A program made the position numbers and the translations under genes. Under the pieces are notes generated by a model. It worked only from the letters and a program-made list of their open reading frames with translations. It did no database searches and was not told where the DNA came from. Positions 40,500 to 61,152 of a stretch of DNA of 64,000 nt are shown one piece after another. Positions within the stretch are counted from its first letter, which is position 1. Every line of letters starts with the position of its first letter. The stretch covers positions 1 through 64,000 of the forward strand of contig JAMCPD010000020.1 in the NCBI GenBank assembly GCA_023379935.1. Direction: 5' to 3'. The stretch comes from Actinomycetota bacterium. Its GTDB lineage: Bacteria > Actinomycetota > Acidimicrobiia > Acidimicrobiales > JAMCPD01.

Positions 40500-41036
40500 A
40501 TGTTTGTATTAGGTATAGACCCCGGACTATCACGATGTGGTTATGGGTGTGTTGATGACGGTTGGGTGTTGGCGGATGCAGGCGTAATCTCTACCCACCA
40601 CAGGTTAGAGTTGCCAAAGCGACTTGAATACTTATTTGAGGAGTTGAAACGGCTTATGTTACGGTTGCAACCGCAAGTCGTGGCAGTGGAAAGAGTGTTT
40701 TTTCAAGTAAATGCCCGCACCGCCATGCCAACAGCCCAAGCAGGAGGGTTGGCTTTGTTGGCCGCTCAACAGGCAGGCTGTAAAGTAGTTCAATATACCT
40801 CCAATGAAGTGAAAATGGCTGTTGTAGGTTATGGTGGTGCCACCAAGGCTCAAGTTCAGAATATGGTAATGATGTTGTTGAGTTTGGATGAGATACCACA
40901 ACCGGCTGATGTTGCGGATGCTCTTGGTTTGGCAATCTGCCACTTAAGTTCGCTACCGCTGCAAAGGGCGTTGTCGAAGTCAACTACCCCGCCCTCACGG
41001 ACGGGGCTTGCGGAAGGTTCCGGAAGCCCAGGTTGA
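40500..41036 (+). CDS. ruvC: Crossover junction endodeoxyribonuclease RuvC, 3' end altered by an IscB element
   Basis: 178 residues. RuvC cuts Holliday junctions after branch migration by RuvAB. Catalytic blocks: GIDPGLSRCGYG (Asp7), VVAVERVFFQVNARTAMPTAQAGGL (Glu), VKMAVVGYGGATKAQVQNMV and DVADALGLAICH (Asp). From about residue 162 onward the sequence (TTPPSRTGLAEGSGSPG) comes from the left end of the element and is not RuvC-like. All catalytic residues lie before that point, so the protein may still work. ruvA, which should follow directly, is now 1.74 kb away. Confidence 0.93.
   Translation: MFVLGIDPGLSRCGYGCVDDGWVLADAGVISTHHRLELPKRLEYLFEELKRLMLRLQPQVVAVERVFFQVNARTAMPTAQAGGLALLAAQQAGCKVVQYTSNEVKMAVVGYGGATKAQVQNMVMMLLSLDEIPQPADVADALGLAICHLSSLPLQRALSKSTTPPSRTGLAEGSGSPG
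40988..41007 (+). repeat. Left-end imperfect palindrome of the IscB element
   Basis: CCCCGCCCTCACGGACGGGG: 8-bp arms with one mismatch around a TCAC loop. It lies in the reading frame of the ruvC tail. Matches the right-end copy at 18 of 20 positions. Confidence 0.8.
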
Positions 41037-41338
41037 CCAGACCGAGATATTAAAGAAAGAAGGTGAGACAGATATCTACGTTACATGCAAGTAAGAAGAC
41101 CTATCCTGGGATGCTTCCTCAGTCCCAGGCTCTAGAATCCGCGTCAGTAGACAACCGTAAGGGCAAGGACGAAACGGGGCGTGGAGGTTGTGGATACACA
41201 ACAACTGGCATGCAACATGGTCGAGGGGATCGTTCTTTGGAGTTCACCTCTCTAAAGAACAGTCACCCCGTGACTTCGGAGAAATCCGGGGGAGCAGGAG
41301 CAAGGAGCGTTGTTGCTCCATTTAGTACCCAATCACGG
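41008..41338 (+). ncRNA. Probable omega-RNA (IscB guide RNA scaffold) leader
   Basis: 331 bp before iscB, rich in inverted repeats on the + strand: CCTGGGA/TCCCAGG (41105-41129), GTTCTTT/AAAGAAC (41232-41260), AGTCAC/GTGACT with a 3-nt loop (41261-41275) and GGAGCAA/TTGCTCC (41297-41319). IscB loci encode the omega-RNA just upstream of iscB, guide at the 5' end reading out across the left end. The frame is open through here but the residues have no IscB similarity. Boundaries are inferred. Confidence 0.65.
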
Positions 41339-42772
41339 GTGTTTGTGGTTGACAGCCACGGCAACCCTCTCGTTCCCTGTCATCCAGCCAGGGCACGGAA
41401 ATTGCTAAAGTCCAGGCGAGCCAGAGTCCACCATTTGGCTCCGTTTGTCATTAAATTGGTGGATAGGGAAGTAGAGCAGTGTGAGGTTCCGGGAGTTGTC
41501 GTGAAGATTGACCCTGGCTCCAAATACACCGGTATTGTTTGCGCTCGCGTGGATGAGGCCGGTATAACTCATGGGCTGGTGTCGATCCAGCTTGATCATC
41601 GCGGGCAGTTGATTCACAAAAAGATGGGACAGCGGTCCAGCTATCGCCGACGCAGACGGTCAACCAATTTACGTTATCGTGCACCACGATGGAGAAATCG
41701 CCACCCACAGGCTTGTCGGACATGTGGAAAAAATGCAAAACATGGAAGTCGATATTGTGGAACGTGTCTTGAGAGTCGTAATTTCATAGATAATGGATAT
41801 CGCCAATACCGACTTCCACCAAGCCTTTTCCATCGAGTTGCGACCTCCATATCATGGATAAATCGTTTGTCCAGGTGGGCTCCGGTTACAAGATTGGCGA
41901 TGGAGCTGGTGAGCTTTGATACCCAGGTGATGCAGAACCCTGAGATATCCGGTGTTCAGTATCAACAAGGTACCCTGGCGGGCTACGAGGTACGGGAGTA
42001 TCTTCTTTGTAAGTGGGGGAGGAGGTGTGCATACTGTGGAGATGCCAACACACCTCTACAAATTGAGCACATTCTGGCTCGCTCCAAAGGTGGAACGAAT
42101 CGAATCTCAAATCTTACCCTTGCCTGTAGGAAATGTAACGAATCCAAAGGCTCTCTAGCTGTAGATGCTTGGTGCAAGCGATATTTCGGAGAACAAAAGG
42201 GAAGGAAAATTGTTGCCAGAGTCACCGGCCAGGCCAAAGCTCCCTTGACGGATGCAGCGGCGGTCAATTCCACCCGTTGGGCATTGTGGCGGGAGCTTGT
42301 TAAGACAGGGCTACCAGTTGAGACCGGTACGGGTGGGCGAACTAAATGGAATCGTAGTCGGCAGAACATCCCTAAGTCTCATACATTGGATGCTCTGTGT
42401 GTAGGTGTGACCGATATCGTCGGTGCAGTGCCAAGCAGTGCACTAACTGTCACCTGCACAGGACGAGGCCAACACCAGAGGACAAGACCCAATAGATATG
42501 GTTTTGTCCGTCTAAGACTACCTCGACAAAAGACCCATCACGGCTTACGTACAGGTGATTATGTGCGGGCAGTGATGCCAAAAGGCAAATACAAAGGAGT
42601 TCATGTTGGACGTATAAGTGTGCGATCATCTGGAAGCGTTCGAGTAGGAAAGACAGACGGCATTTCTGCGAAGAATTGCACGGTTTTGCAACGAGCAGAT
42701 GGTTATGGATATGAGAGAAAGGAGGAAACGCCTCTCCTCCCCGCCCTTACGGACGAGGTATCCGAGGCGTGA
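41339..42772 (+). CDS. iscB: IscB RNA-guided nuclease (Cas9 ancestor family)
   Basis: 477 residues from GTG 41339. The N-terminal PLMP domain reads VFVVDSHGNPLVPCHPARARKLLKSRRARV. RuvC-I IDPGSKYTGI (Asp58), Arg-rich bridge helix SSYRRRRRSTNLRYR, a CxxC..CxxC zinc knuckle (RTCGKN..YCGTC), RuvC-II LAMELVSFD (Glu189), HNH CAYCGDANTPLQIEHILARSKGG (His244) with CRKCN, and RuvC-III SHTLDALCVG (His348, Asp351). All catalytic residues are present, so it should be active. The stop lies 6 bp before ruvA. The frame is open to 41063, but those residues overlap the structured leader. The family cuts DNA under omega-RNA guidance and helps keep the element in its site. Confidence 0.93.
   Translation: MFVVDSHGNPLVPCHPARARKLLKSRRARVHHLAPFVIKLVDREVEQCEVPGVVVKIDPGSKYTGIVCARVDEAGITHGLVSIQLDHRGQLIHKKMGQRSSYRRRRRSTNLRYRAPRWRNRHPQACRTCGKNAKHGSRYCGTCLESRNFIDNGYRQYRLPPSLFHRVATSISWINRLSRWAPVTRLAMELVSFDTQVMQNPEISGVQYQQGTLAGYEVREYLLCKWGRRCAYCGDANTPLQIEHILARSKGGTNRISNLTLACRKCNESKGSLAVDAWCKRYFGEQKGRKIVARVTGQAKAPLTDAAAVNSTRWALWRELVKTGLPVETGTGGRTKWNRSRQNIPKSHTLDALCVGVTDIVGAVPSSALTVTCTGRGQHQRTRPNRYGFVRLRLPRQKTHHGLRTGDYVRAVMPKGKYKGVHVGRISVRSSGSVRVGKTDGISAKNCTVLQRADGYGYERKEETPLLPALTDEVSEA
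42739..42758 (+). repeat. Right-end imperfect palindrome of the IscB element
   Basis: CCCCGCCCTTACGGACGAGG, 18 of 20 identical to the left copy and in the same orientation. It overlaps the last codons of iscB. A further GCCTC/GAGGC pair flanks it. Confidence 0.8.
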
Positions 42773-42778
42773 AAATTG

Positions 42779-43633
42779 ATGATAGCATTCCTTGACGGTA
42801 GATTGATCTCCAAGTTAACACTTGCCGATAATGTCTCCGAAGTTGTAGTCGATGTCGGTGGAATAGGTTATCAAGTATTTGTCGCTGATCAGACCTTTGC
42901 CAAATTACCGGCTTCAACGGACAGAGTGCAGTTATGGATACATACCTATGTCAGAGAAGAAACCTTTGCGCTTTATGGATTTCTTGATCCAATAGAGAGA
43001 AAGTTTTTCCAAATTTTATTGACGGCCCGCGGTGTCGGTCCTTCGCTTGGGCTTTCATTGTTGTCGCTGCATTCGCCACTTACGATATGGGAGGCGGTAA
43101 CGGTAGAAGATGTGGATTTGTTGTCCTTGGTGCCAGGCATTGGACCTAAGACTGCCGCCCGGTTGTGCTTGGAGTTGAAGAATCGTTTGCCGGATCGCCA
43201 TGTGTTGGAGAGTTGGTCGGTAGGTTTATCGGCTTTGGGCTATGAAGCAGATGAGGGGAAAACGAATAAGGACGCAACAGACGAAGGTGCGCCAAGCACG
43301 GACAAGGCGGTTCTTGTTCCGAAGCCAGCCGGGGACAAGAATGAAAAGAGCGGATCAGTGATTCTTGGGGTGGACGGGCCGGGGAATGGTTCTGCACTGG
43401 TAGATCTAAAGGGCGCCTTAGAGGAGTTGGGATATACACCAAAGGAGATTCGGTTTGCACTCTCGGCTATTTATTCATCACAACTGAATGCAAGTATGCT
43501 AAATGGTGGAAAACAAGGCAGTGATTCTATGGATAGCCGCCAAAGCAAAGCAAGCCTGCAAGAGTTGTTGCGTTTTGCACTAAGTGAATTGAGACAGAAA
43601 AACGGAAATATAGAAAGGAACAGATCATGGTGA
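42779..43633 (+). CDS. ruvA: Holliday junction DNA helicase subunit RuvA
   Basis: 284 residues from ATG 42779 (TTG 42776 is in frame just before). RuvA tetramers bind the four-way junction. Domain I: MIAFLDGRLISKLTLADNVSEVVVDVGGIGYQVFV; domain II with two helix-hairpin-helix motifs, RGVGPSLGLSLLS and VPGIGPKTAARLCLELKNRL. It is longer than the usual ~200 residues: an acidic, Lys/Gly-rich linker of about 70 residues (around 145-215) precedes domain III (LKGALEELGYTPKEIRFALSAI). Now separated from ruvC by the IscB element. ruvB overlaps its end by 7 bases. Confidence 0.95.
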   Translation: MIAFLDGRLISKLTLADNVSEVVVDVGGIGYQVFVADQTFAKLPASTDRVQLWIHTYVREETFALYGFLDPIERKFFQILLTARGVGPSLGLSLLSLHSPLTIWEAVTVEDVDLLSLVPGIGPKTAARLCLELKNRLPDRHVLESWSVGLSALGYEADEGKTNKDATDEGAPSTDKAVLVPKPAGDKNEKSGSVILGVDGPGNGSALVDLKGALEELGYTPKEIRFALSAIYSSQLNASMLNGGKQGSDSMDSRQSKASLQELLRFALSELRQKNGNIERNRSW

Positions 43634-51047: not shown

Positions 51048-54000
51048 TTAGACATACCAACCGGTTACATCCACAACCAGGTTTGCAGAACCTTGATACA
51101 GTCCGATACTTATATCGCCTGAAGCAGAAAGTGCAACTGTAACAGAGTTTGCTATTACCTCACCTGCTACAAAGTTCAGGTTTGATACGGTTGGTTGAGA
51201 TAAACCTTTAGGCCAAACAGTTATATATCCTGATGCAGTTGGATCTATAGCCGTTACGTTGACTACTACAGCTTTGGCATTAGAAGGTATTGGTCCTATA
51301 CCGGCTAAGCTAAGCGTAAGTGGGGTAGAAGAGACAAGGGGAGATCCCGAACAAGGAGTCGCATAACCTACCATTGTTGCATCTCTTGTATCGCATGCTC
51401 TATATGGAGCTGTTCCTACAAAACTTACTCCGGTTGTCGAAGCAGAAAAGTACCCTGTTACATCAACGGTTACATCTGTGTTTCCGTAGAAGTTGTAGAT
51501 AGATATTTCACCCGGAGATGAACCTGTAGATAAAGGCACTACAACAGCGTTTGGAACGGTTTCACCACTTGTAAAGTTTAGATTTGATGCGGTTGGTTGA
51601 GATAAACCTTCAGGCCAAACAGTCAGATAACCCGATGTAGTTGGATCTATTGCCGTTACGTTCAGTACTACAGCGCTAGCAGTTGTAGGAACAGGGGTTT
51701 GTCCTGAAGGTAGATATGGACTGTTATACCCTGAAACTTCTACATTTAGGGTCTGTTTTGCTCCAATTGGAGATGCACCGTTTATATTGCACTGGTTTTG
51801 TAAGATTGAACTGGTTTTGGGTACTCTTGTGTCACATATTCTATAAGGGGTAATTGGGGAAAAGGTAGCTCCACCAGAGGGTGGTCCATAGTATCCTTCA
51901 ACATCAACCACAACATCTGATGAGGCATAAGAGTATATAGAGATACAGCCCGTACACGAAGTTGTTGTACCAAGTGCAACCTCACTCAGATTGGGAACGG
52001 TTTCACCAGATGTGTAGTTGAGTGAAGAAGCGGTAGGTTTAACTTCTCCCGCAGGCCAAACAGTCAGATAACCCGATGCAGTTGGATCTATAGCCGTTAT
52101 ATTCAGTACTACAGCGCTAGCAGTTGTTGGGATTTCGGCAAGCCCCGCAACTTCTACACTTAGGGTCTGTTTTGCACTGAGTGTACTAAGTGAAGAGTTG
52201 GCATTTGGCAGGTTTTCTCCGGTACAAAGCCCCGGTTGTGGGTACGTAGAGCAGCGAGTGTCAACTATACGGGCAGGGGTTAACGGGATATATGCAGATC
52301 CAGCATATGTAGTTGTACTGACAAGATGGGTATCGAAAAATGACAGGGTTGAGGGGAACTCTGTGGGGTAGTAAGCAAATGCATGAGCACAGAGGTTATT
52401 TATATCCATTTGCACCGTCAATATCTCAGAGTTTGCTCTTTGCTGAACCTCCTCAGCTTGGCGGGGTGGCACTATTTCACAAGTACCAACTCCTGTGAAA
52501 TCAGACGATGCGGCAACTAAGATAGGGGGATCACTAGGCGATTGCGAAGGAGATGGATCGATGAATTGAGCGGGTGATGCCTCTTCAAATCGGTTAAGAC
52601 AGATATTTGCTGTCAGATTCCATGTTTGACTCCAAGGGTCGCTGCAGCCAATATACTCGGCCCAGCTGGTATTTGCCAAGTTAAATCCACTGTTTTGCTG
52701 ATACTCTCCAATAAGCTCGAACGTATCTGTTGTTCCAGACCAACTTGCCACCGCCTGTACGATGGCTGAGGGTTGTATAAACGGCGCAGACAAAGCAGCA
52801 GAAAGTGCCAGATTCCCGCCGGCTGATCCACCCCAGAGACCGATTTCATTGGGGTTGATTTTATAGAGGTTTGCATTGGAGCGTACCCAACTGACAGCGT
52901 TCATAACGTCGTAAACTGGGTTTGGAAAGGTGGGCTGGGTTTGAGTGGCGAGTGGATAATCGACCGCGAATGCTGCGATACCATGTTGGGCAAGGGCGAT
53001 TGACTCGGTTGCCACATCGCACTTGTCGCCGCTGATATGACCACCGCCATGAACGACTACTACGGCCGGGATAGAGGCGGATATTGTTTGTGGCAAATAA
53101 GCATCAAGGTAGAGAGGGCTGTTGAAGTCATTACCATATACTATATTCGGTGTATAAGTTACAGCCGATCCTGCCGGAGGCAAACATGTAGATGGCGGGG
53201 TTATGAGTGTAACTCCTGTTATTGGCGGAGGAAGTGGTGATGGTGGAGGAGCTGAGATTGGATTACCATCAAGTTGTTGCTCTAACCATGTCGTTGTATT
53301 TTCAAGCATGGTTCCGCTTCCCGGAGGAGATATAGGGTCGTTCGCATAGGCTAATGAATGAGCACACGCGCTTGTTGTCTGTACTGTAACTGCTACACCA
53401 TGGGTTGTCAGAGCAGTTGCCATTTCAACAGTGTTCTGGGGATTGATTATTTCACACTGACCCGGAGAAGTTCCTGCATCTGTACTTGTAACGAGGAGGG
53501 ATGGTGGGTCGCCTCTAGTGACATGGGTTATGGGTGATGAGCCAAGGAGATTTCCAAAACAGGGGCTGTCAGTCATGTTACTGCAGCCAATGTACTCTTC
53601 CGCCGCTTGAGTAGCAGCCGGTTGTGCGGCAGCATCCGCATAATAAAAGGTGACCCAATCATAAGGACCCGACCATCCGGCTATAGCCTGTACCCGAGCC
53701 GGAGCATCTGAGAGCTGTGCTTCATATGCAGCATCAAAAGCTATGGGAGCACCGGCAGAAGTTCCCCACAATGCCAGCTTATTTGCCATTACGCCTAAGC
53801 TTGATGCATAGGTTCGTACCCATTGTACCGAAAGCTGAGTATCGGCTGGAGCTTCGGTAAAGGTGGGCTGAGTTGTAGTAGCCAGCGGATAGTCAATTGA
53901 GAATACGGCCAAGCCATGCTGGGCCATGTATATTTGCTCTGTCCCGCCGTTACACTTGCTGCCTCCGATAAAGGCACCACCATGGACATAGATGACAGCG

Positions 54001-54344
54001 GGAACAGGACCATTTGTACTTTGTGGTAAGTATGCATCAAGATAGAGATTTGTATTTAGATTTATATCATGTCCGTATAGCAGGTTGCCGTAGAAATTGA
54101 CACCGGGACTAGAGGAAGGACAGCATGTTGGCGTGAGAGGTCCTGAATTACATGTACCGGCAGTTGGTAAGTTAGGTGCAGGACCTAAGAGTGGGGGACT
54201 GTCGGCTTGCAGATTAGCCCCGGTTGTACCGGTAGTAATCTCTGCCGAAGTGAACTTTCCAACCCCGATCCCCGCTATAGTTATCACACTCAACAACATC
54301 ATCAGGATGAAACTTTTGATCATGGTGCTTTCAAATTTTCTCAT
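51048..54344 (-). CDS. Large secreted tandem esterase with three C-terminal beta-repeat modules
   Basis: 1098 residues. Signal peptide at 1-34 (SFILMMLLSVITIAGIGV). Two alpha/beta-hydrolase (carboxylesterase/BD-FAE-like) domains: the first has VYVHGGAF at 119-124, GTSAG with Ser196 and CAHS His329; the second VVHGGGH, GGSAG with Ser507 and CAHA His654. Both triads look complete. Residues ~688-1098 hold three copies of an actinobacterial extracellular module (RIVDTR ... ASAVVLNVTAIDPTASGYLTVWP ... NLNFTSGETVPN ... VVVDVTGYY). Substrate unknown; plausibly a cell-surface or polysaccharide-linked ester. GAGG lies before the ATG. A fragment of a sister gene is at 61179-61232. Confidence 0.82.
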   Translation of the reverse strand: MRKFESTMIKSFILMMLLSVITIAGIGVGKFTSAEITTGTTGANLQADSPPLLGPAPNLPTAGTCNSGPLTPTCCPSSSPGVNFYGNLLYGHDINLNTNLYLDAYLPQSTNGPVPAVIYVHGGAFIGGSKCNGGTEQIYMAQHGLAVFSIDYPLATTTQPTFTEAPADTQLSVQWVRTYASSLGVMANKLALWGTSAGAPIAFDAAYEAQLSDAPARVQAIAGWSGPYDWVTFYYADAAAQPAATQAAEEYIGCSNMTDSPCFGNLLGSSPITHVTRGDPPSLLVTSTDAGTSPGQCEIINPQNTVEMATALTTHGVAVTVQTTSACAHSLAYANDPISPPGSGTMLENTTTWLEQQLDGNPISAPPPSPLPPPITGVTLITPPSTCLPPAGSAVTYTPNIVYGNDFNSPLYLDAYLPQTISASIPAVVVVHGGGHISGDKCDVATESIALAQHGIAAFAVDYPLATQTQPTFPNPVYDVMNAVSWVRSNANLYKINPNEIGLWGGSAGGNLALSAALSAPFIQPSAIVQAVASWSGTTDTFELIGEYQQNSGFNLANTSWAEYIGCSDPWSQTWNLTANICLNRFEEASPAQFIDPSPSQSPSDPPILVAASSDFTGVGTCEIVPPRQAEEVQQRANSEILTVQMDINNLCAHAFAYYPTEFPSTLSFFDTHLVSTTTYAGSAYIPLTPARIVDTRCSTYPQPGLCTGENLPNANSSLSTLSAKQTLSVEVAGLAEIPTTASAVVLNITAIDPTASGYLTVWPAGEVKPTASSLNYTSGETVPNLSEVALGTTTSCTGCISIYSYASSDVVVDVEGYYGPPSGGATFSPITPYRICDTRVPKTSSILQNQCNINGASPIGAKQTLNVEVSGYNSPYLPSGQTPVPTTASAVVLNVTAIDPTTSGYLTVWPEGLSQPTASNLNFTSGETVPNAVVVPLSTGSSPGEISIYNFYGNTDVTVDVTGYFSASTTGVSFVGTAPYRACDTRDATMVGYATPCSGSPLVSSTPLTLSLAGIGPIPSNAKAVVVNVTAIDPTASGYITVWPKGLSQPTVSNLNFVAGEVIANSVTVALSASGDISIGLYQGSANLVVDVTGWYV

Positions 54345-54411: not shown

Positions 54412-54504
54412 CTACTCAGATATCCTGTCTTTACAGTTAGAAGGAGTTTTCGCTCTTGAAATCTGATGACACTTAGAATAAAGTCATACAGGATATCTGA
54501 GTAG
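54412..54504. repeat. 17-bp perfect inverted repeat flanking 59 bp
   Basis: CTACTCAGATATCCTGT at 54412-54428 and its exact complement at 54488-54504. It lies between two minus-strand genes, in the leader of the large esterase gene. It could be a MITE-like remnant, a long hairpin acting as terminator of the upstream gene, or a protein site. No T-tract and no clear target duplication is seen. Confidence 0.85.
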
Positions 54505-54523
54505 TTGTGCCGTAGTTAGCCGT

Positions 54524-55369
54524 TTATGACTTGCGAATATCTTTTATGATCTCCCAGAAATCGTTGCGTACGGTATGCAGATACCCAACACCACCCACGA
54601 GATTGTTTCTGGCTTGCACAAATATCGTCTTGTTGCCCGGGTATCCTTGTGGGGTTGCTTCAAGCACATTGTTTGTTGCGCTAGCTGTGTCAGAATCTGC
54701 TTGAGATAATGCCGAGTTTAGGTTCTGGAGGGTTGCTTCTGCTGAGCCAACGTTTAAACCTTGTTGTTGTGCAGTGGTGATAGCAGCTTGGATTTCTGGA
54801 ATAACTGCGGCTATCTGCAGCTCGACATAGCTTTCCCTGTCTTTAGCCATGGTCAGTTCCACTTGAGGTGACATTACCATAAAAACTCGGTAGTTTTCTA
54901 TCATTGAGCGAGCATATACCTGAAGCTGATAACGATCAGTAGTTGCTTGCACTTCCCCCAGTAGTGTTTCCATGCCGGATGTCTCATTGCTCAAAAGATT
55001 ATCCAAAGCGGACTTATCGGTGGTCGTAAGAGTTGCAGATGCATTTACCCTTGCAGTTAGTTTACTCAGTTGCAAAAGGCGAATGTTTATCTGTTGTTCG
55101 ACTCTTTGTTGCAACTCCATACAAGGTGTAGTTGTCGACGAACCGCTTACACTTGAACTCTGCGGGACGACATTACTTGAAACCGATGTACTACTCGTAG
55201 CAGCATTCGGCAATGTAGATGCAGTTACGCATGGGCCTAAATGGGGAACTCTGGGAACCCTTGGAGATAGCTGTGCGCCTGCCGCAGATGGGGTAAGTCC
55301 TATTATGGTTGCAATAACCAGCACCGACGATAATAAGACTACGTTTTTTTTAAATATAAAAGTTTTCAT
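54524..55369 (-). CDS. Secreted protein of unknown function, helical
   Basis: 281 residues from ATG 55369, chosen for the Shine-Dalgarno AAGGAGAA just before it; an alternative ATG at 55429 overlaps the previous gene by 4 bases (ATGA). A signal peptide (NVVLLSSVLVIATIIGLTPSAAGAQ) is followed by a Ser/Thr-rich stretch and then long amphipathic helices (LQQRVEQQINIRLLQLSKLTARVNAS ... IPEIQAAITTAQQQGLNVGSAEATLQNLNSAL). No catalytic motif is seen. The upstream lipoprotein is probably its operon partner. Confidence 0.7.
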   Translation of the reverse strand: MKTFIFKKNVVLLSSVLVIATIIGLTPSAAGAQLSPRVPRVPHLGPCVTASTLPNAATSSTSVSSNVVPQSSSVSGSSTTTPCMELQQRVEQQINIRLLQLSKLTARVNASATLTTTDKSALDNLLSNETSGMETLLGEVQATTDRYQLQVYARSMIENYRVFMVMSPQVELTMAKDRESYVELQIAAVIPEIQAAITTAQQQGLNVGSAEATLQNLNSALSQADSDTASATNNVLEATPQGYPGNKTIFVQARNNLVGGVGYLHTVRNDFWEIIKDIRKS

Positions 55370-55425
55370 GATTGTTCTCCTTGTTCTTTTGACTCTTCCT
55401 GTTTTCATAGCTGTTTTCATAGTTA

Positions 55426-55746
55426 TCATCCTTCCTTACCCGACATGTCGTTTGCAGCATTGTTCAAGTGCTGGGTTATCGAAGAAAGCTCAGAATCAAT
55501 TTGAGCCAGCCCGATAGAATTGATTGGCAATGCCGATGGGGGAGTTGAAAAGCTGGATTTTGTTACAACTCCAGAACCTTGCCTACGAGAGGTTATGGTT
55601 TTTGCAACTGTGGTAACCGTAGAACTACCAGCTGATGCTTGTTTGGATACCCCGGCACAACCACTCAGCGTTGTTCCAACTATCATTATGACTATAGGCA
55701 GCATAATCAAGAATGATTTTTTCATGTTCCTAAATTTTTTATTCAT
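55426..55746 (-). CDS. Small lipoprotein, unknown function
   Basis: 106 residues. AAAAAGGAG lies before the ATG at 55746. Signal peptide KKSFLIMLPIVIMIVGTTLSGC with a classic lipobox (LSGC), then a Ser/Thr-rich linker and a short helix (IGLAQIDSELSSITQHLNNAANDM) similar in style to the helical protein encoded next. The start codon lies inside repeat module R1, so R1 supplies the promoter and Shine-Dalgarno. Confidence 0.75.
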   Translation of the reverse strand: MNKKFRNMKKSFLIMLPIVIMIVGTTLSGCAGVSKQASAGSSTVTTVAKTITSRRQGSGVVTKSSFSTPPSALPINSIGLAQIDSELSSITQHLNNAANDMSGKEG

Positions 55747-55900
55747 TTTGTCTCCTTTTTAAATAAACTGCTGTTTTAGCAACTGTAATTAATTATCGAG
55801 TAGGAAAGTTAACATATGATGATCAGTTTGTTAGGGTATTGTTAGCAGTTTTGTCTGCTACAAGCAATACAATTTACTGAGCAGTTATAGTTAGATAACG
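55727..55900 (-). repeat. Promoter module R1
   Basis: First of three related ~130-180 bp segments. It contains the start of the lipoprotein gene (minus strand), its Shine-Dalgarno, GTTTTAGCAACTGTAATTAA, GTTAACATATGATGATCA and the TTGTTA-GGGTA-TTGTTA box. R2 (56304-56484) matches along its whole length with scattered differences; R3 (58792-58923) matches the upstream part. Confidence 0.9.
55828..55844. promoter_or_regulatory. Direct-repeat operator candidate in R1
   Basis: TTGTTAGGGTATTGTTA: two TTGTTA hexamers 11 bp apart, the spacing bound by OmpR/PhoB-type dimers. Identical in R2 and R3. Confidence 0.6.
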
Positions 55901-56076
55901 GTAACTACAGAGCTCAAAGAGAAACTAAAGCTAGATCTGACACGTAAATTTATCACCTTGGGCGAAATTAAAAAATTATCGGACAAACAAAAAAAGGTCC
56001 TTATCCACAATGACTTTTATCACAAAATAAAACCGTAAGATCCTTATGCCAACAGGCTAAAGGAGGAGTTTTATAA

Positions 56077-56280
56077 ATGTTAACTGCCAGAGTTAATATA
56101 GATGACAACATCGTGACATACCTGTACAACCTGGCAAAAAGGGAAAAGCGGGTGATGAACCTAAAAGGGGGGCGAACAGTTCATCATCCGCTTTCCAACG
56201 CCAACTTAATCGGTAGGTTGCCGGAACATTTCAACGATTGTCTACTGGCGCTCGAGGATCATCAAAAAATATCCTCCTAG
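56077..56280 (+). CDS. Small ORF with strong ribosome site, unknown
   Basis: 67 residues. A full AAAGGAGG Shine-Dalgarno stands at the right distance before the ATG, which argues that it is translated. The protein is basic with no recognised motif (ends LPEHFNDCLLALEDHQKISS). Just upstream, about 55900-56037, another stretch reads openly in frame (LTRKFITLGEIKKLSDKQKK) with no start codon, so this may be the remains of a longer gene. It is flanked by repeat modules R1 and R2. Confidence 0.5.
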   Translation: MLTARVNIDDNIVTYLYNLAKREKRVMNLKGGRTVHHPLSNANLIGRLPEHFNDCLLALEDHQKISS

Positions 56281-56323
56281 AGCTCTTACGACGCCAGGCC
56301 CACTTCCTAAATTTTTTATTCAT
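56231..56323 (-). pseudogene. Truncated copy of the lipoprotein gene start
   Basis: R2 carries the same Shine-Dalgarno and first codons (MNKKF) as the lipoprotein at 55746; after these the frame diverges (WAWRRKSSRRIFF...) and stops after 30 residues. It has no lipobox. This shows that R2 arose by duplication of the lipoprotein promoter region and lost the gene body. Confidence 0.6.
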
Positions 56324-56484
56324 TTTGTCTCCTTTTTTAAATAAACTGCTGTTTTAGCAACTGTAATTAATTATCGAAGAAGAAAGTTAACATATGATGA
56401 CCATTTTGTTAGGGTATTGTTAAAGCTTTGCCTGTTACAAGCAATAAAATTTACTGAGCAGTTGTAGTTGGGCAACGAAAGCTT
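56304..56484 (-). repeat. Promoter module R2
   Basis: Second copy of the module, in the same orientation as R1, 577 bp away. It is followed on the minus strand only by a truncated gene start; its other edge touches the 3' end of the esterase at 56484. Confidence 0.9.
56406..56422. promoter_or_regulatory. Direct-repeat operator candidate in R2
   Basis: TTGTTAGGGTATTGTTA, identical to the R1 and R3 boxes while flanking bases differ. Confidence 0.55.
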
Positions 56485-57515
56485 CATGATTTGACATATT
56501 TTAAAGCGAAGTTAATCGAATCTTGCATTACGGTTTTGTTGACAGGTGCACTCGGAATTGATTCTTCCGGAGATTGATCCGTAAATTTATAAAAAGCGTA
56601 ACCGCTGGCATGACGGTCGGTATCGGGAATTCTCAGCCAGTTAACAATCCCGTTTTGGGTGAGCGCACCTGCATAGTCAATTGCATTCAGGGGGCTGATA
56701 AATTCACTGAGTCCGTTTGCTATGTACTGAGGTGCCATAGCCGAATTAATCCGGTGCATGGGGTCGCCAAATTTTTCGACGTCAGATCCCGGAGAAGCTC
56801 TCATATATCGGTCAAAAACAGAATTTGGGTAATTTCCTGCTTCACTTACATCAGGCAGCCCTGACCAACCTACAACTGCACTGATAGGAACTCCGGCAAT
56901 TTGGGTAGCACCAACCATATATGCGTTGTGAGCGCCCGACGATGCGCCAAAAATTACAACGCCTAATGTCGGATCGGCACCGTACTTTGCGGGATCGTTG
57001 CTCAAAAAATATCTGATTGCCGGTTTGATGTCAATCTGAACCGTTCCGTCGGCAATATTCTTCCATTTTCCCGCACCGGGATAGCTAACGTTGCCATAAA
57101 GACCGTTTGCAAATCCGTGATATTCGATATTTACAGCCACAAAACCTTTTTTTGCCCAGTTGGCCATTATGCCGTTAAAGCCCAAATACTCAGGATAGCT
57201 GCTTCCCTGTGAACAGCCGGCAGACCCTTGAAACCCTGTACCGCCCATCCCAAACACTATCGGATGCAGTCCAGTTGTATCTGGAGAAATAACCGTATAG
57301 CTAAGAGCATCGGTCCCGCTACAGGTCTGTTGACTGTATCCATCGTGCTCATAAGTAACCTCCGGCCAAATGTGTACCGCTGAGGATATACCTGCTCCCG
57401 TAGTCGTTGTTGAGACAGAACTGCCGGTAGATTGGGTCGATTTTGTGCATGAGGAAAGAGATACACTGCAGTACACCAAAATCATGACAATAGCAGCAAT
57501 CTGTTTGAAGATCAT
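56484..57515 (-). CDS. Lipoprotein alpha/beta hydrolase (esterase-like)
   Basis: 343 residues from ATG 57515 (MIFKQIAAIVMILVYC...), chosen because it opens a signal peptide with lipobox LSSC; the frame is open 49 codons further, inside the preceding gene. The fold shows HPIVFGMGGTGFQGSAG and the nucleophile GASSGAHNAY; a late His in DRHASGYAFYKF is a triad candidate. Substrate unknown; similar in style to cutinase/polyester hydrolases. It starts 2 bp after the glycosidase stop, so the two form an operon. Confidence 0.78.
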   Translation of the reverse strand: MIFKQIAAIVMILVYCSVSLSSCTKSTQSTGSSVSTTTTGAGISSAVHIWPEVTYEHDGYSQQTCSGTDALSYTVISPDTTGLHPIVFGMGGTGFQGSAGCSQGSSYPEYLGFNGIMANWAKKGFVAVNIEYHGFANGLYGNVSYPGAGKWKNIADGTVQIDIKPAIRYFLSNDPAKYGADPTLGVVIFGASSGAHNAYMVGATQIAGVPISAVVGWSGLPDVSEAGNYPNSVFDRYMRASPGSDVEKFGDPMHRINSAMAPQYIANGLSEFISPLNAIDYAGALTQNGIVNWLRIPDTDRHASGYAFYKFTDQSPEESIPSAPVNKTVMQDSINFALKYVKS

Positions 57516-57516
57516 C

Positions 57517-58737
57517 TCAGGTCCCTTGTGCGATGTTCCGGTATGCCTGGTATGAAGCCTTTGTTTCATAGTTTGAATATGCCAATCCTGCTCCGAATCC
57601 TTCAGAAAAAGTCTTATTGTATGAGGAATCTGGAGGCGGAGTTTGAGCAGTGTTTGGATCAATCATAAACGTCCAGTCGATTCCGGTTACATTGGAGTCT
57701 TTAGCCAAAGCATTAAACGTATCGGTGAGGAAATCTGCCTGACCTACCTCGCCCCCCCTATACTTCCCCCCCAGTTCGATACTGTAAACAGCTGAATTCT
57801 GAAGCGAAGGAGTTGAAGGGTATCCTACTTCGGTTACCCAAACAGGCAAATGACGGCCGCCGTCACAGCTTGTAACAGCCTTTTCGGAAGCATCAACTAT
57901 CTGGGGCGAATAAATCGGTCCGTGATCTCCAACATGGATATCCAATATATCTATAGAATCGCACCACTGAGGATTGGAATACAAAGACCGTGCAAATGCG
58001 CTCACCTCATTTTCATAGGGAGTGATCGGGCCTAAGCGTGACCGGATGGCTTCAAGCGAGAGCGGAACAGCTTCTGTTCCTCCGTTTAATATTTTGATGC
58101 CAGGGTCTGCCGTATGTGCTGTTTGAAAAACAACCTGTTGAAAATGGGCAAATGTCGCCGCGCTTCCGCCCACCCAGTTCTTATTAAAATTTTGAGGTTC
58201 ATTACGCGTAATTATATACTGAAGGCCCTCTGACTTACAGTGGTTAACAAGTGCGGTTACATAATTTTTCACTGAGCTGCATGAAGCAGTTGTACTGTTG
58301 CAGTCTATCGGAGGCGCACTGGTGTTCCCTCCCGTTGCATCCCACACAGGCTCATTTCCGAGTTCAAACAGTACAGTCAATTTGTCTGCTTGCGCCAATG
58401 AAAATAATCTGTCGATTGCCGTCCAATTAAACATACCGTTTGACGGCTCAGTACCTGCCCAATTGCCTCCGATCCTTACTGCAGCTCCCCCGGCCTCCTC
58501 GATAAGCTTTAGGACTTTTGCCAGATTGGAAGCGCCGATATCGCTGTCAAACTGGTTAACGTCGATACCATAAACAGTTTGGAGCGGCGGATTTGGATTT
58601 GTGACCGTTGCTGGCGAGGTACTTGGTGAAGTGCCTGTTGTTGCATTGACAGTGACGTTAGGAGAGGTTGAACGCCCGCATGCCGACATTGTTAACAGTA
58701 ACGCTATGGATAAACAAAAAATTATATGCTTTCTCAT
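57517..58737 (-). CDS. Lipoprotein glycoside hydrolase (clan GH-A, GH39/GH5-like)
   Basis: 406 residues. Signal peptide with lipobox (IALLLTMSAC). (beta/alpha)8 glycosidase features: GNWAGTEPSNGMFNWTAIDRLFSLAQ, LFELGNEPVWD, acid/base Glu in IITRNEPQNFNKNW and nucleophile Glu in LPVWVTEVGYPS. Family assignment is uncertain: GH39-like by the NEP...TEVG pattern. Promoter module R3 lies 54 bp upstream, and the response regulator gene is divergent across the same gap. Confidence 0.78.
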   Translation of the reverse strand: MRKHIIFCLSIALLLTMSACGRSTSPNVTVNATTGTSPSTSPATVTNPNPPLQTVYGIDVNQFDSDIGASNLAKVLKLIEEAGGAAVRIGGNWAGTEPSNGMFNWTAIDRLFSLAQADKLTVLFELGNEPVWDATGGNTSAPPIDCNSTTASCSSVKNYVTALVNHCKSEGLQYIITRNEPQNFNKNWVGGSAATFAHFQQVVFQTAHTADPGIKILNGGTEAVPLSLEAIRSRLGPITPYENEVSAFARSLYSNPQWCDSIDILDIHVGDHGPIYSPQIVDASEKAVTSCDGGRHLPVWVTEVGYPSTPSLQNSAVYSIELGGKYRGGEVGQADFLTDTFNALAKDSNVTGIDWTFMIDPNTAQTPPPDSSYNKTFSEGFGAGLAYSNYETKASYQAYRNIAQGT

Positions 58738-58791
58738 AATTTCTAACTTAAATCAAATCCCTGAGTTTTAATACGAAGTGCAACACTTCTC

Positions 58792-58923
58792 GTTTTAGCA
58801 ACTGTAATTAATTATTGAGGAGGGAAGTTAACATATGATGATCATTTTGTTAGGGTATTGTTAAAGTTTTGTCTGTTACAAGCAATACAATTTACTGACA
58901 GTTATAGTTGGGTAATAAAAGCT
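58792..58923 (-). repeat. Promoter module R3
   Basis: Third copy, shared from GTTTTAGCAACTGTAATTAA to AGTTATAGTTGGGTAA. It lies between the divergent glycosidase and response-regulator genes and so could serve both. It lacks the gene-start part of R1 and R2. Confidence 0.85.
58847..58863. promoter_or_regulatory. Direct-repeat operator candidate in R3
   Basis: TTGTTAGGGTATTGTTA, 91 bp before the response-regulator ATG and 110 bp before the glycosidase ATG. It is a natural autoregulatory site. Confidence 0.6.
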
Positions 58924-58953
58924 GCAATGAAGAACTAGGAATGTACCGATATC

Positions 58954-59643
58954 ATGACACCAAAAGCATCACCAAAATCATTAGGGACTATTATTGTCGT
59001 GGAAGATGATCACAACATATCTGATTTAGTGGCAACTTATCTTAGAAATGAGGGTTACAGAGCTGTTCAGGTAGAAGAAGGGGAGAAAGTTTTACAAATT
59101 TTCGAACGTGAAACTCCGCGTCTTGTTGTCTTAGATATAGGTCTAAGTGGGACACTGGATGGCTTGGATGTTTGTCGCAAGTTGCGTTCAATTAATTCAA
59201 CGCCAATTTTGATACTTACCGCACGCGACAGCGAACTTGATCGTATTATTGGTTTGGAACTTGGTGCAGACGATTATGTTACCAAGCCATTTTCTCCCAG
59301 GGAGTTAGTTGCGCGCATCAAGGCTATTTTACGTCGTAGTGACCCAGATCTGCAAACTTCTATATTGGTATCGGGAGATATAGTAGTAGATGTTACAAGG
59401 CACCAAGTTCGGGTAGCTGAAGAAGTAATAGATCTTGCTGCCCAGGAGTTTGATCTGCTAACCTATTTACTCCGACACAAAGGTGTAGTCCTTAGCAGAC
59501 GTCAGATATTAGATGGAGCTTGGGAGTTTGGTTGGTTTGGTGATGAGCGTACTGTTGATGTTCATATTCGCCAGCTTCGTAAAAAACTAGGGGATGCACT
59601 TCTGATACATACTGTATGGGGAGTGGGATATAGGTTAGGATAA
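58954..59643 (+). CDS. OmpR/PhoB-family response regulator
   Basis: 229 residues. Receiver domain with acidic pair EDDH, phospho-acceptor Asp61 (VVLDIGLSG), TARD and the conserved Lys in DDYVTKPFSPREL. The C-terminal winged helix has LAAQEFDLLTYLLRHKGVVLSRRQILDGAWEF and RTVDVHIRQLRKKLGD, ending VWGVGYRLG. It is followed 3 bp later by the sensor kinase. Its promoter region is module R3; winged-helix regulators of this class bind 11-bp-spaced direct repeats, as found in R1-R3. Confidence 0.96.
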   Translation: MTPKASPKSLGTIIVVEDDHNISDLVATYLRNEGYRAVQVEEGEKVLQIFERETPRLVVLDIGLSGTLDGLDVCRKLRSINSTPILILTARDSELDRIIGLELGADDYVTKPFSPRELVARIKAILRRSDPDLQTSILVSGDIVVDVTRHQVRVAEEVIDLAAQEFDLLTYLLRHKGVVLSRRQILDGAWEFGWFGDERTVDVHIRQLRKKLGDALLIHTVWGVGYRLG

Positions 59644-59646
59644 AAC

Positions 59647-61152
59647 TTGATCACTTCCGGTGCTCGCTCTTTACGTATGCAGCTTAGCCTATGGTCTATT
59701 GGAATCGCCTTTGTAGGTTTTATTTTAATCGGTTTTGTATCGATTTTTTTAGAACATAAGGCAGTAGTGGCTAATGAGCAGTCGGAACTACTTGCTCAGA
59801 CTAAGACAGTTGCTTCAGATATGCATCTTATTCGCTCGCCATCAATACTTAAGCCTATAGCGCGAACCTTGAAGGTTACAGGATATTCCCTCATGTTCTA
59901 TCGTTGGAATGGAACTATTATAGTTGGCGCACAGTCAACTCTTCCCGCTCCTTTAGTCCCCTCCGACATACCTCCACAGGCGGTTTTAGATGCAACCCCC
60001 ATAAGCGCCACTGTAGGCAAGGTGATATTTGCTGCAGTTCCGGCACAGATCAGCTTGCATAATATCTTCTCTATTGCAATTACCAAGTGCGCAGCTATTC
60101 CATCGGCTAAAGCTCGTCGCAATTGCCAAGTGGCGCTTAAGAAAAAATCCTCCTTTCTAAGTACGGTGGAAGGAGTAGTAGTTGTTTTTGCACGACAAGA
60201 AAGTGGTTTTGGCGACAGCATTATTTATTTTTTAGTTGCCTCATCCCTGGCGCTTATTGTTGTCATAGCACTGGTGCTGACCTTTAGCAGACGGATTACC
60301 AGATATCTAACCAACGCAGCCCGCGTTACAGTACAAATAGCCAATGGTGATTTAACAGCCAGGGTTCCTCTGGAGGATAGCCGGTATTCAGAGATCGTTT
60401 CACTTGCTCACTCAATCAATATAATGGCTGACTCCCTCAGTAATGCCCAAGCGGCTCAACATAACTTTTTGCTTTCAATATCTCATGACTTACGCACCCC
60501 ACTGACCTCCATTCGCGGTTTCACAGAAGCAATTATTGACGGTGTTGTTGACGATGTTGTAAAAGCAGGAGAAGTAATACTGGATCAGGAGCAGCGCCTT
60601 GAGCGTTTAATTGGTGACTTACTTGATTTGACGAAACTGGATACCAATCAGTTTACCCTTGATATGAAGCCCATAAATATCTCTCAAGTTGTTTCAAATA
60701 GTGTTAGAGGATTTCAGCAAGCTTTTGACACAGAGGGTTTGAGATTGTCGCTTGGGATTGCGGATGAAAACCTTTGGGTTAATGCCGACACTGATCGCCT
60801 CAGCCAGGTATTTTCGAATTTAATTGAAAATGCTTTTAAGTTTGCTCGTAACTATGTAGACATTCGGGTTGAGCGTAATCAAAGTGATGCAGTGGTATCT
60901 ATTGAAGATGACGGCCCGGGAATACCCGCTAAAGATCTACCCTATATTTTTGAACGTTTGTATTCTTCATCATCAACTCCCGCCAGACAAATAGGGACTG
61001 GGCTTGGTTTGACGATAGTTTTAGAACTATTGAATGCAATGGGAGGGAGCATACGGGCAGTTTCTCCACCTGATGCCAATGGTTATGCCACCAGGGAAGG
61101 TGTCGCTAAGGGTGGTACTCTTATGGTAGTCAAGATGCCTTTGTTGGGTTGA
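59647..61152 (+). CDS. Sensor histidine kinase
   Basis: 501 residues from TTG 59647. A first membrane helix (about 12-33), an extracytoplasmic sensor of ~150 residues containing two Cys (TKCAAIPSAKARRNCQ), a second helix (about 193-215), HAMP, HisKA with His280 (SISHDLRTPLTSIRGF) and the ATPase with NLIENAFKFA, DDGPGIPAKDLPYIFERLY and GTGLGLTIVLELL. No known ligand. The pair sits beside secreted esterases and glycosidases, its likely regulon. Confidence 0.95.
   Translation: MITSGARSLRMQLSLWSIGIAFVGFILIGFVSIFLEHKAVVANEQSELLAQTKTVASDMHLIRSPSILKPIARTLKVTGYSLMFYRWNGTIIVGAQSTLPAPLVPSDIPPQAVLDATPISATVGKVIFAAVPAQISLHNIFSIAITKCAAIPSAKARRNCQVALKKKSSFLSTVEGVVVVFARQESGFGDSIIYFLVASSLALIVVIALVLTFSRRITRYLTNAARVTVQIANGDLTARVPLEDSRYSEIVSLAHSINIMADSLSNAQAAQHNFLLSISHDLRTPLTSIRGFTEAIIDGVVDDVVKAGEVILDQEQRLERLIGDLLDLTKLDTNQFTLDMKPINISQVVSNSVRGFQQAFDTEGLRLSLGIADENLWVNADTDRLSQVFSNLIENAFKFARNYVDIRVERNQSDAVVSIEDDGPGIPAKDLPYIFERLYSSSSTPARQIGTGLGLTIVLELLNAMGGSIRAVSPPDANGYATREGVAKGGTLMVVKMPLLG

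What the first reader, a model, noticed from the sequence alone, without database searches (positions are those of the whole stretch)
55727..58923. A promoter module repeated three times beside its probable two-component regulator
R1, R2 and R3 share ~130 bp; R1 and R2 share more. All keep TTGTTA-GGGTA-TTGTTA exactly while neighbouring bases drift. Two 6-bp half-sites 11 bp apart is the pattern read by OmpR/PhoB winged-helix dimers. R1 drives a lipoprotein and a secreted helical protein, R3 a glycosidase/esterase lipoprotein operon and, divergently, the regulator itself. I infer a small surface-hydrolase regulon built by promoter duplication, controlled by the 58954-61152 pair.
Basis: partly seen in the sequence, partly recalled or inferred. 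Interest (0 to 1): 0.68.

Follow-up and report, generated by a model that had tools for sequence, protein, structure and literature searches.

The report
Conserved two-component regulon for surface proteins
Three near-identical promoter copies in an uncultured actinobacterium carry a DNA box that related species place in front of the same regulator gene and the same kinds of secreted-protein genes, so a small, undescribed sensor-controlled set of surface proteins is probably real, although its mechanism is of a well-known type.

Summary
The repeats are real: R1, R2 and R3 are 89-91% identical over 133-175 bp and all carry TAACAATACCCTAACAA on the minus strand. That exact conservation proves little, because a 24-nt stretch beside it is just as invariant. 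Comparative genomics decides. Orthologs of the adjacent response regulator (mostly 58-66% identical, order Acidimicrobiales) carry TTCACACTTtCCTCAC in their own promoters. A matrix trained on those promoters, without the window, ranks the R boxes 4th, 5th and 11th of about 128,000 positions. The same 11-bp direct repeat precedes homologs of the helical protein, two glycosidase clusters and further secreted proteins elsewhere in the order; half-sites are enriched only at 5-nt spacing (16 hits, at most 2 at any other). Genomes with the helical protein nearly always have the kinase (22 of 24, against 48 of 174). Lipoprotein plus helical protein is a conserved operon. It is an ordinary OmpR/PhoB-type regulon, apparently undescribed. 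DNA binding is untested.

The parts
55727..55900 (-). R1: promoter repeat of the lipoprotein + helical-protein operon
55829..55845 (-). R1 box CTAACAATACCCTAACA, two half-sites 11 bp apart, 99 bp before the lipoprotein ATG
56304..56486 (-). R2: promoter repeat with a 30-codon stub behind it; hybrid of R1-like and R3-like flanks
56407..56423 (-). R2 box TTAACAATACCCTAACA
58785..58926 (-). R3: promoter repeat between the glycosidase-like operon and the regulator gene
58848..58864 (-). R3 box TTAACAATACCCTAACA, 127 bp before the ATG of the glycosidase-like gene
55426..55746 (-). Small lipoprotein (106 aa), conserved partner upstream of the helical protein
   Evidence: lipobox and C-terminal motif; alignment of 10 homologs
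54524..55429 (-). Secreted, predicted helical protein (301 aa); overlaps the lipoprotein gene by 4 bp
   Evidence: homologs in 24 of 198 order genomes; no Pfam family
57517..58737 (-). Lipoprotein with a glycosidase-like domain (406 aa)
   Evidence: sub-threshold Pfam Glyco_hydro_cc and PDB GH10 matches; 60% identical homologs in the order
56484..57527 (-). Esterase-like lipoprotein (BD-FAE family, 347 aa), overlaps the glycosidase-like gene
   Evidence: PF20434 above cut-off; 63-66% homologs next to glycosidase homologs in L041 and L043
58954..59643 (+). Response regulator, receiver + winged-helix domain
   Evidence: PF00072, PF00486; orthology
59647..61152 (+). Membrane histidine kinase (HAMP, HisKA, HATPase_c)
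   Evidence: homologs at E <= 1e-60 in 70 of 198 order genomes

Best explanation
R1-R3 are copies of one promoter that carries a tandem (head-to-tail) binding site, consensus about YTMACR-N5-YTMACR, for the response regulator at 58954-59643. When the kinase at 59647-61152 phosphorylates it, the regulator binds the two half-sites 11 bp apart as a tandem dimer and, as at PhoB-type promoters, helps RNA polymerase at a -10 element roughly 23-29 bp from the box start. It thereby drives the lipoprotein + helical-protein operon (R1) and the glycosidase-like + esterase operon (R3); R2 is a copy that has lost its gene. Shown: the repeats, the box, orthology of the regulator, recurrence of the box in the regulator's own promoter and before homologs of the same targets in other genera, the 11-bp period, co-occurrence of kinase and target. 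Inferred: binding, activation rather than repression, the signal (some envelope condition), and autoregulation in this genome.
For: Regulator orthologs carry TTCACACTTtCCTCAC before their start with a -10-like hexamer at constant distance. A matrix from 14 such sites, without the window, ranks the R boxes 4, 5 and 11 of about 128,000 positions; shuffled boxes reach the score in 13-102 of 20,000. The stringent pattern hits 6 places in 198 genomes, control 0; 4 precede this regulator, 1 a secreted protein. The 1-mismatch pattern in 19 genomes: 21 hits, control 4; further hits precede secreted proteins in G145, G065 and G119 at 90-96 bp. In G145, G065 and G119 the regulator site and the target site are similar to each other. 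Helical-protein homologs: 8 of 19 upstream regions at p <= 0.05, all on the coding strand. Spacing scan: 16 hits at 5 nt, 0-2 at others. Three half-sites in register before the glycosidase clusters of G072 and G108. Kinase/helical protein co-occurrence 22 of 24 against 48 of 174, Fisher 1.5e-9; glycosidase 8 of 8. Lipoprotein-helical protein operon next to the pair in G003 and G061.
Against: In the window the box points away from the regulator, unlike most relatives. About half of the regulator orthologs and of the helical-protein homologs show no box. The closest regulator relatives (G108, G020, G072) lack it at the regulator. The 60% glycosidase homologs in G119 and G096 have no box before that gene. 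In the own genome the degenerate pattern gives 3 hits, no more than its reversed control. Genomes share ancestry, so the co-occurrence p-value is too small. No binding data.
Confidence: 0.78

Rival explanations
1. The box is read by another OmpR-type regulator of the cell, for example the MtrA-like one at G000:C12:28572 or the RegX3-like one at G000:C7:6008, and the neighbouring pair is only one of its targets.
For: MtrA and PHO boxes have the same layout: 5-7 nt direct repeats on an 11-bp period (PMC5650626; PMC4415409). The genome has five further OmpR-type regulators. About half of the helical-protein homologs with a box are far from the pair.
Against: The box recurs before this regulator rather than before random genes; target and kinase co-occur; in G003 and G061 the box, its target operon and the pair are adjacent.
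Confidence: 0.13
2. R1-R3 are just a recent local duplication; the box is unchanged because the copies are young, and it has no regulatory meaning.
For: Invariance of the box within the repeats is not exceptional; R2 heads no gene; the box occurs only in the repeats.
Against: The relatives' matrix, trained without the window, finds these very boxes, and homologous genes elsewhere carry the same direct repeat.
Confidence: 0.06
3. R is a small mobile element or a structured leader RNA.
For: Three dispersed copies; the R1-R2 spacer holds a fragment of a multi-copy element, other copies of which lie at contig ends.
Against: No copies outside this 3.2 kb in 1.9 Mb, all in one orientation; leaders fold no better than shuffles (z 0.08, -0.49, 0.33); no Rfam match.
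Confidence: 0.03

Closest known systems
PhoB/PhoP PHO-box regulons (E. coli PhoB, Streptomyces PhoP; SenX3-RegX3 of mycobacteria)
   Same: Winged-helix regulator; operators are 11-nt direct repeat units bound head-to-tail; Streptomyces unit GTTCACC resembles TTCACA (PMC4415409). RegX3 is the best solved relative of the regulator.
   Different: Not the RegX3 ortholog: another regulator of this genome is 56% identical to RegX3, this one 45%. The only PhoU genes found lie on another contig; no phosphate genes next to the pair.
MtrAB of Actinobacteria
   Same: Two 5-6 nt direct repeats separated by 5 nt, ending in AC (PMC5650626); OmpR-family regulator.
   Different: This regulator is 40% identical to MtrA, while another regulator of the genome is 45%; score below the MtrA curated cut-off (204.8 against 300).
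CpxRA-CpxP-like envelope stress systems (from general knowledge)
   Same: A membrane kinase whose regulator controls small secreted, helical proteins and, in relatives, probably itself.
   Different: No family match of the lipoprotein or the helical protein to CpxP/Spy; feedback on the kinase is not shown.

Membership tests
OmpR/PhoB-type two-component system | Receiver domain plus C-terminal winged helix, with an adjacent membrane histidine kinase | tested here: met
   PF00072, PF00486; HAMP, HisKA, HATPase_c
OmpR/PhoB-type two-component system | Operators made of direct repeats on an 11-bp period | tested here: met
   Spacing scan, enrichment at 5 nt between 6-nt half-sites only
OmpR/PhoB-type two-component system | Regulator binds the operator | not testable with these tools
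   Only footprint by comparison
PhoB/PhoP/RegX3 (phosphate) | Ortholog of RegX3/PhoB | tested here: not met
   Own paralog L249 56% to RegX3, this regulator 45%; PhoB model score 216.5 below cut-off 296.2
PhoB/PhoP/RegX3 (phosphate) | Phosphate genes among the targets | tested here: inconclusive
   No box elsewhere in the genome; PhoU on contig C7; genome 91% complete
MtrAB | Ortholog of MtrA | tested here: not met
   40% identity, another own regulator 45%; below MtrA cut-off
CpxP/Spy-type secreted feedback protein | Homology of the secreted target to CpxP/Spy | tested here: not met
   No Pfam family for the lipoprotein or helical protein or for homologs above cut-off
CpxP/Spy-type secreted feedback protein | Secreted target inhibits the kinase | not testable with these tools
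   needs an experiment

The most novel reading that the evidence does not exclude
An envelope-sensing module of Acidimicrobiales not described so far: a two-component pair plus its conserved target operon, a small lipoprotein and a secreted helical protein, in which the secreted pair reports on the cell surface and feeds back on the kinase, while local promoter copying brings surface hydrolases under the same control.
Probability: 0.2. Interest if true: 0.6.

Novelty: new member of a known kind. Interest (0 to 1): 0.45.

Why it matters
It gives a testable regulator-box-target assignment for an order of bacteria known mostly from metagenomes, points to a conserved lipoprotein + helical-protein operon with no known family as the core target, and predicts targets in many genomes from one 11-bp direct repeat. 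The type of mechanism itself is well known.

Tried and rejected
Genome-wide regulon by the exact 17-mer: no further copies, and 3-mismatch hits do not exceed the reversed control. Conservation of the box within the repeats as evidence: rejected. Leader RNA or riboswitch: no unusual fold, no Rfam match. Mobile element: no copies elsewhere. Pho or MtrA membership: rejected by orthology. The 33-column matrix that includes the GC-rich -10 region of the relatives did not put the window boxes among its top 15; the box alone was then scored. AlphaFold of the helical protein without an alignment was unusable (pLDDT 44), so no fold search was made. Generic sigma-70 scan: no excess of promoters over shuffles. 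Literature on such a system in Acidimicrobiales: three papers held all search words, none on this topic by title or abstract.

Full report
Setting. The window is part of contig C20 of a 1.9-Mb, 25-contig genome, about 91% complete. The best match of the kinase among named genomes is an Acidimicrobiales bacterium (L097) whose contig is the same length as G020:C1, a genome offered as 'same order'; so the order is Acidimicrobiales. No other genome of its family is held.

The repeats. R1, R2 and R3 are genuine local direct repeats and occur nowhere else in the genome. R2 is a hybrid: on the gene side it matches R1 up to codon 6 of the lipoprotein gene; on the other side it matches R3 about 11 bp further than R1 does. 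The reading frame after R2's ATG is a 30-codon stub. The 17-bp box is invariant, but so are a neighbouring 24-nt run and a 17-nt run, and the longest-run statistic is unremarkable (P = 0.75). Judged by the three copies alone, the box is not singled out.

The regulator. The response regulator at 58954-59643 has clear orthologs in the order, mostly 58-66% identical. The reverse search with one of them gives 61% to this protein and at most 43% to any other regulator of the genome. In several relatives it lies divergent from an indole-3-glycerol-phosphate-synthase-like gene (sequence reading). It is neither the RegX3 nor the MtrA ortholog of this genome.

Phylogenetic footprint. Upstream of many of these orthologs a box TTCACACTTtCCTCAC recurs, usually 55-60 bp before the conserved start of the protein, with a -10-like hexamer 26 bp from the box start. 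The window box read on the minus strand, TTAACAATACCCTAAC, differs from the G047 site TTCACACTTCCCTAAC at 3 of 16 positions. A matrix from 14 such sites, trained without the window, ranks R3, R2 and R1 at 4, 5 and 11 of about 128,000 positions of the window. The stringent pattern TTCACACTTNCCTMAC hits six places in 198 genomes and its reversed control none: four before this regulator, one before a secreted protein, one apparently inside a coding region. The one-mismatch version in 19 genomes hits 21 places against 4 for the control. Hits away from the regulator precede signal-peptide proteins in G145, G065 and G119, 90-96 bp from box to ATG, as R1 is 99 bp from the lipoprotein ATG. The secreted proteins in these three genomes look related to each other by eye; no Pfam family reaches its cut-off.

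Targets. Homologs of the helical protein occur in 24 of 198 genomes. Their upstream regions carry the box on the coding strand in 8 of 19 loci at p <= 0.05 by the regulator-trained matrix. In 213 other upstream regions of the same and related loci only six score 13 or more on the coding strand: three regulator-linked (part of the training set), two glycosidase clusters and one other. With a looser half-site pattern, 14 of 15 hits in the helical-protein loci lie on the same strand within about 470 bp upstream of the gene or at its annotated start, with up to four half-sites in 11-bp register. The looser pattern was chosen after seeing hits, so its clean control is the spacing scan: 16 hits at 5 nt against 0-2 at every other spacing from 0 to 15. 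A small lipoprotein with a lipobox, a Ser/Thr-rich linker and a short C-terminal motif stands directly before the helical protein in 10 of 19 loci, as in the window: a conserved operon. In G003 and G061 (one genus) box, lipoprotein, helical protein, regulator and kinase are all adjacent. The first genes of the glycosidase clusters of G072 and G108 have three half-sites in register, but the 60%-identical homologs in G119 and G096 have none. Genomes with the helical protein have the kinase (E <= 1e-60) in 22 of 24 cases, against 48 of 174 others; shared ancestry makes the p-value too small.

How it most likely works. The kinase senses an unknown, probably envelope-related condition and phosphorylates the regulator, which binds the tandem half-sites and activates genes for secreted proteins and lipoproteins. 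The position of the box before the -10 fits an activator of the PhoB kind; this is inference. In the window the R3 box points to the glycosidase-like operon; whether the regulator gene is also controlled from R3 is open.

Origin. Since homologs of both target operons carry the box in other families, regulon membership is probably older than the R repeats. The R repeats look like local copying of one promoter over others, with R2 left behind.

Limits. No binding or expression evidence; related genomes are not independent; the glycosidase label is weak; the pattern count in the own genome equals its control, so the case rests on location and on relatives; the genome is about 9% incomplete.

Noticed in passing
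window 40500-43633: An IscB RNA-guided nuclease gene (41063-42772, RRXRR and HNH domains) with its HEARO/omega-RNA (40979-41236) sits exactly between ruvC and ruvA.
   Followed up: partly
window 55972-56022: In the R1-R2 spacer, a 51-bp piece of a multi-copy sequence; other copies lie at the very ends of contigs C21 (both ends) and C7 and inside C3, as expected of an insertion-sequence end. The spacer also holds a 67-aa ORF (56078-56281 region) with a good ribosome-binding site and no Pfam match.
   Followed up: partly
window 51048-54344: A 1098-aa secreted protein with two BD-FAE esterase domains and three C-terminal repeats of about 130 aa; a relative of its C-terminal part lies near a helical-protein homolog in L177.
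   Followed up: partly
window 54412-54505: A perfect inverted repeat of about 15 bp (ACTCAGATATCCTGT / ACAGGATATCTGAGT) with a loop of about 60 nt between the helical-protein gene and the esterase gene, seen in the raw sequence.
   Followed up: no
L203 7427-8179 (genome G047): A different secreted protein, convergent with the kinase gene, has a direct-repeat box (ATAACAGAGCCCTAACG) about 100 bp before its ATG.
   Followed up: partly
L205 around 1198 (genome G102): The box before the regulator points the other way, toward a divergent gene for a secreted, apparently membrane-fusion-like protein, as in the window.
   Followed up: no
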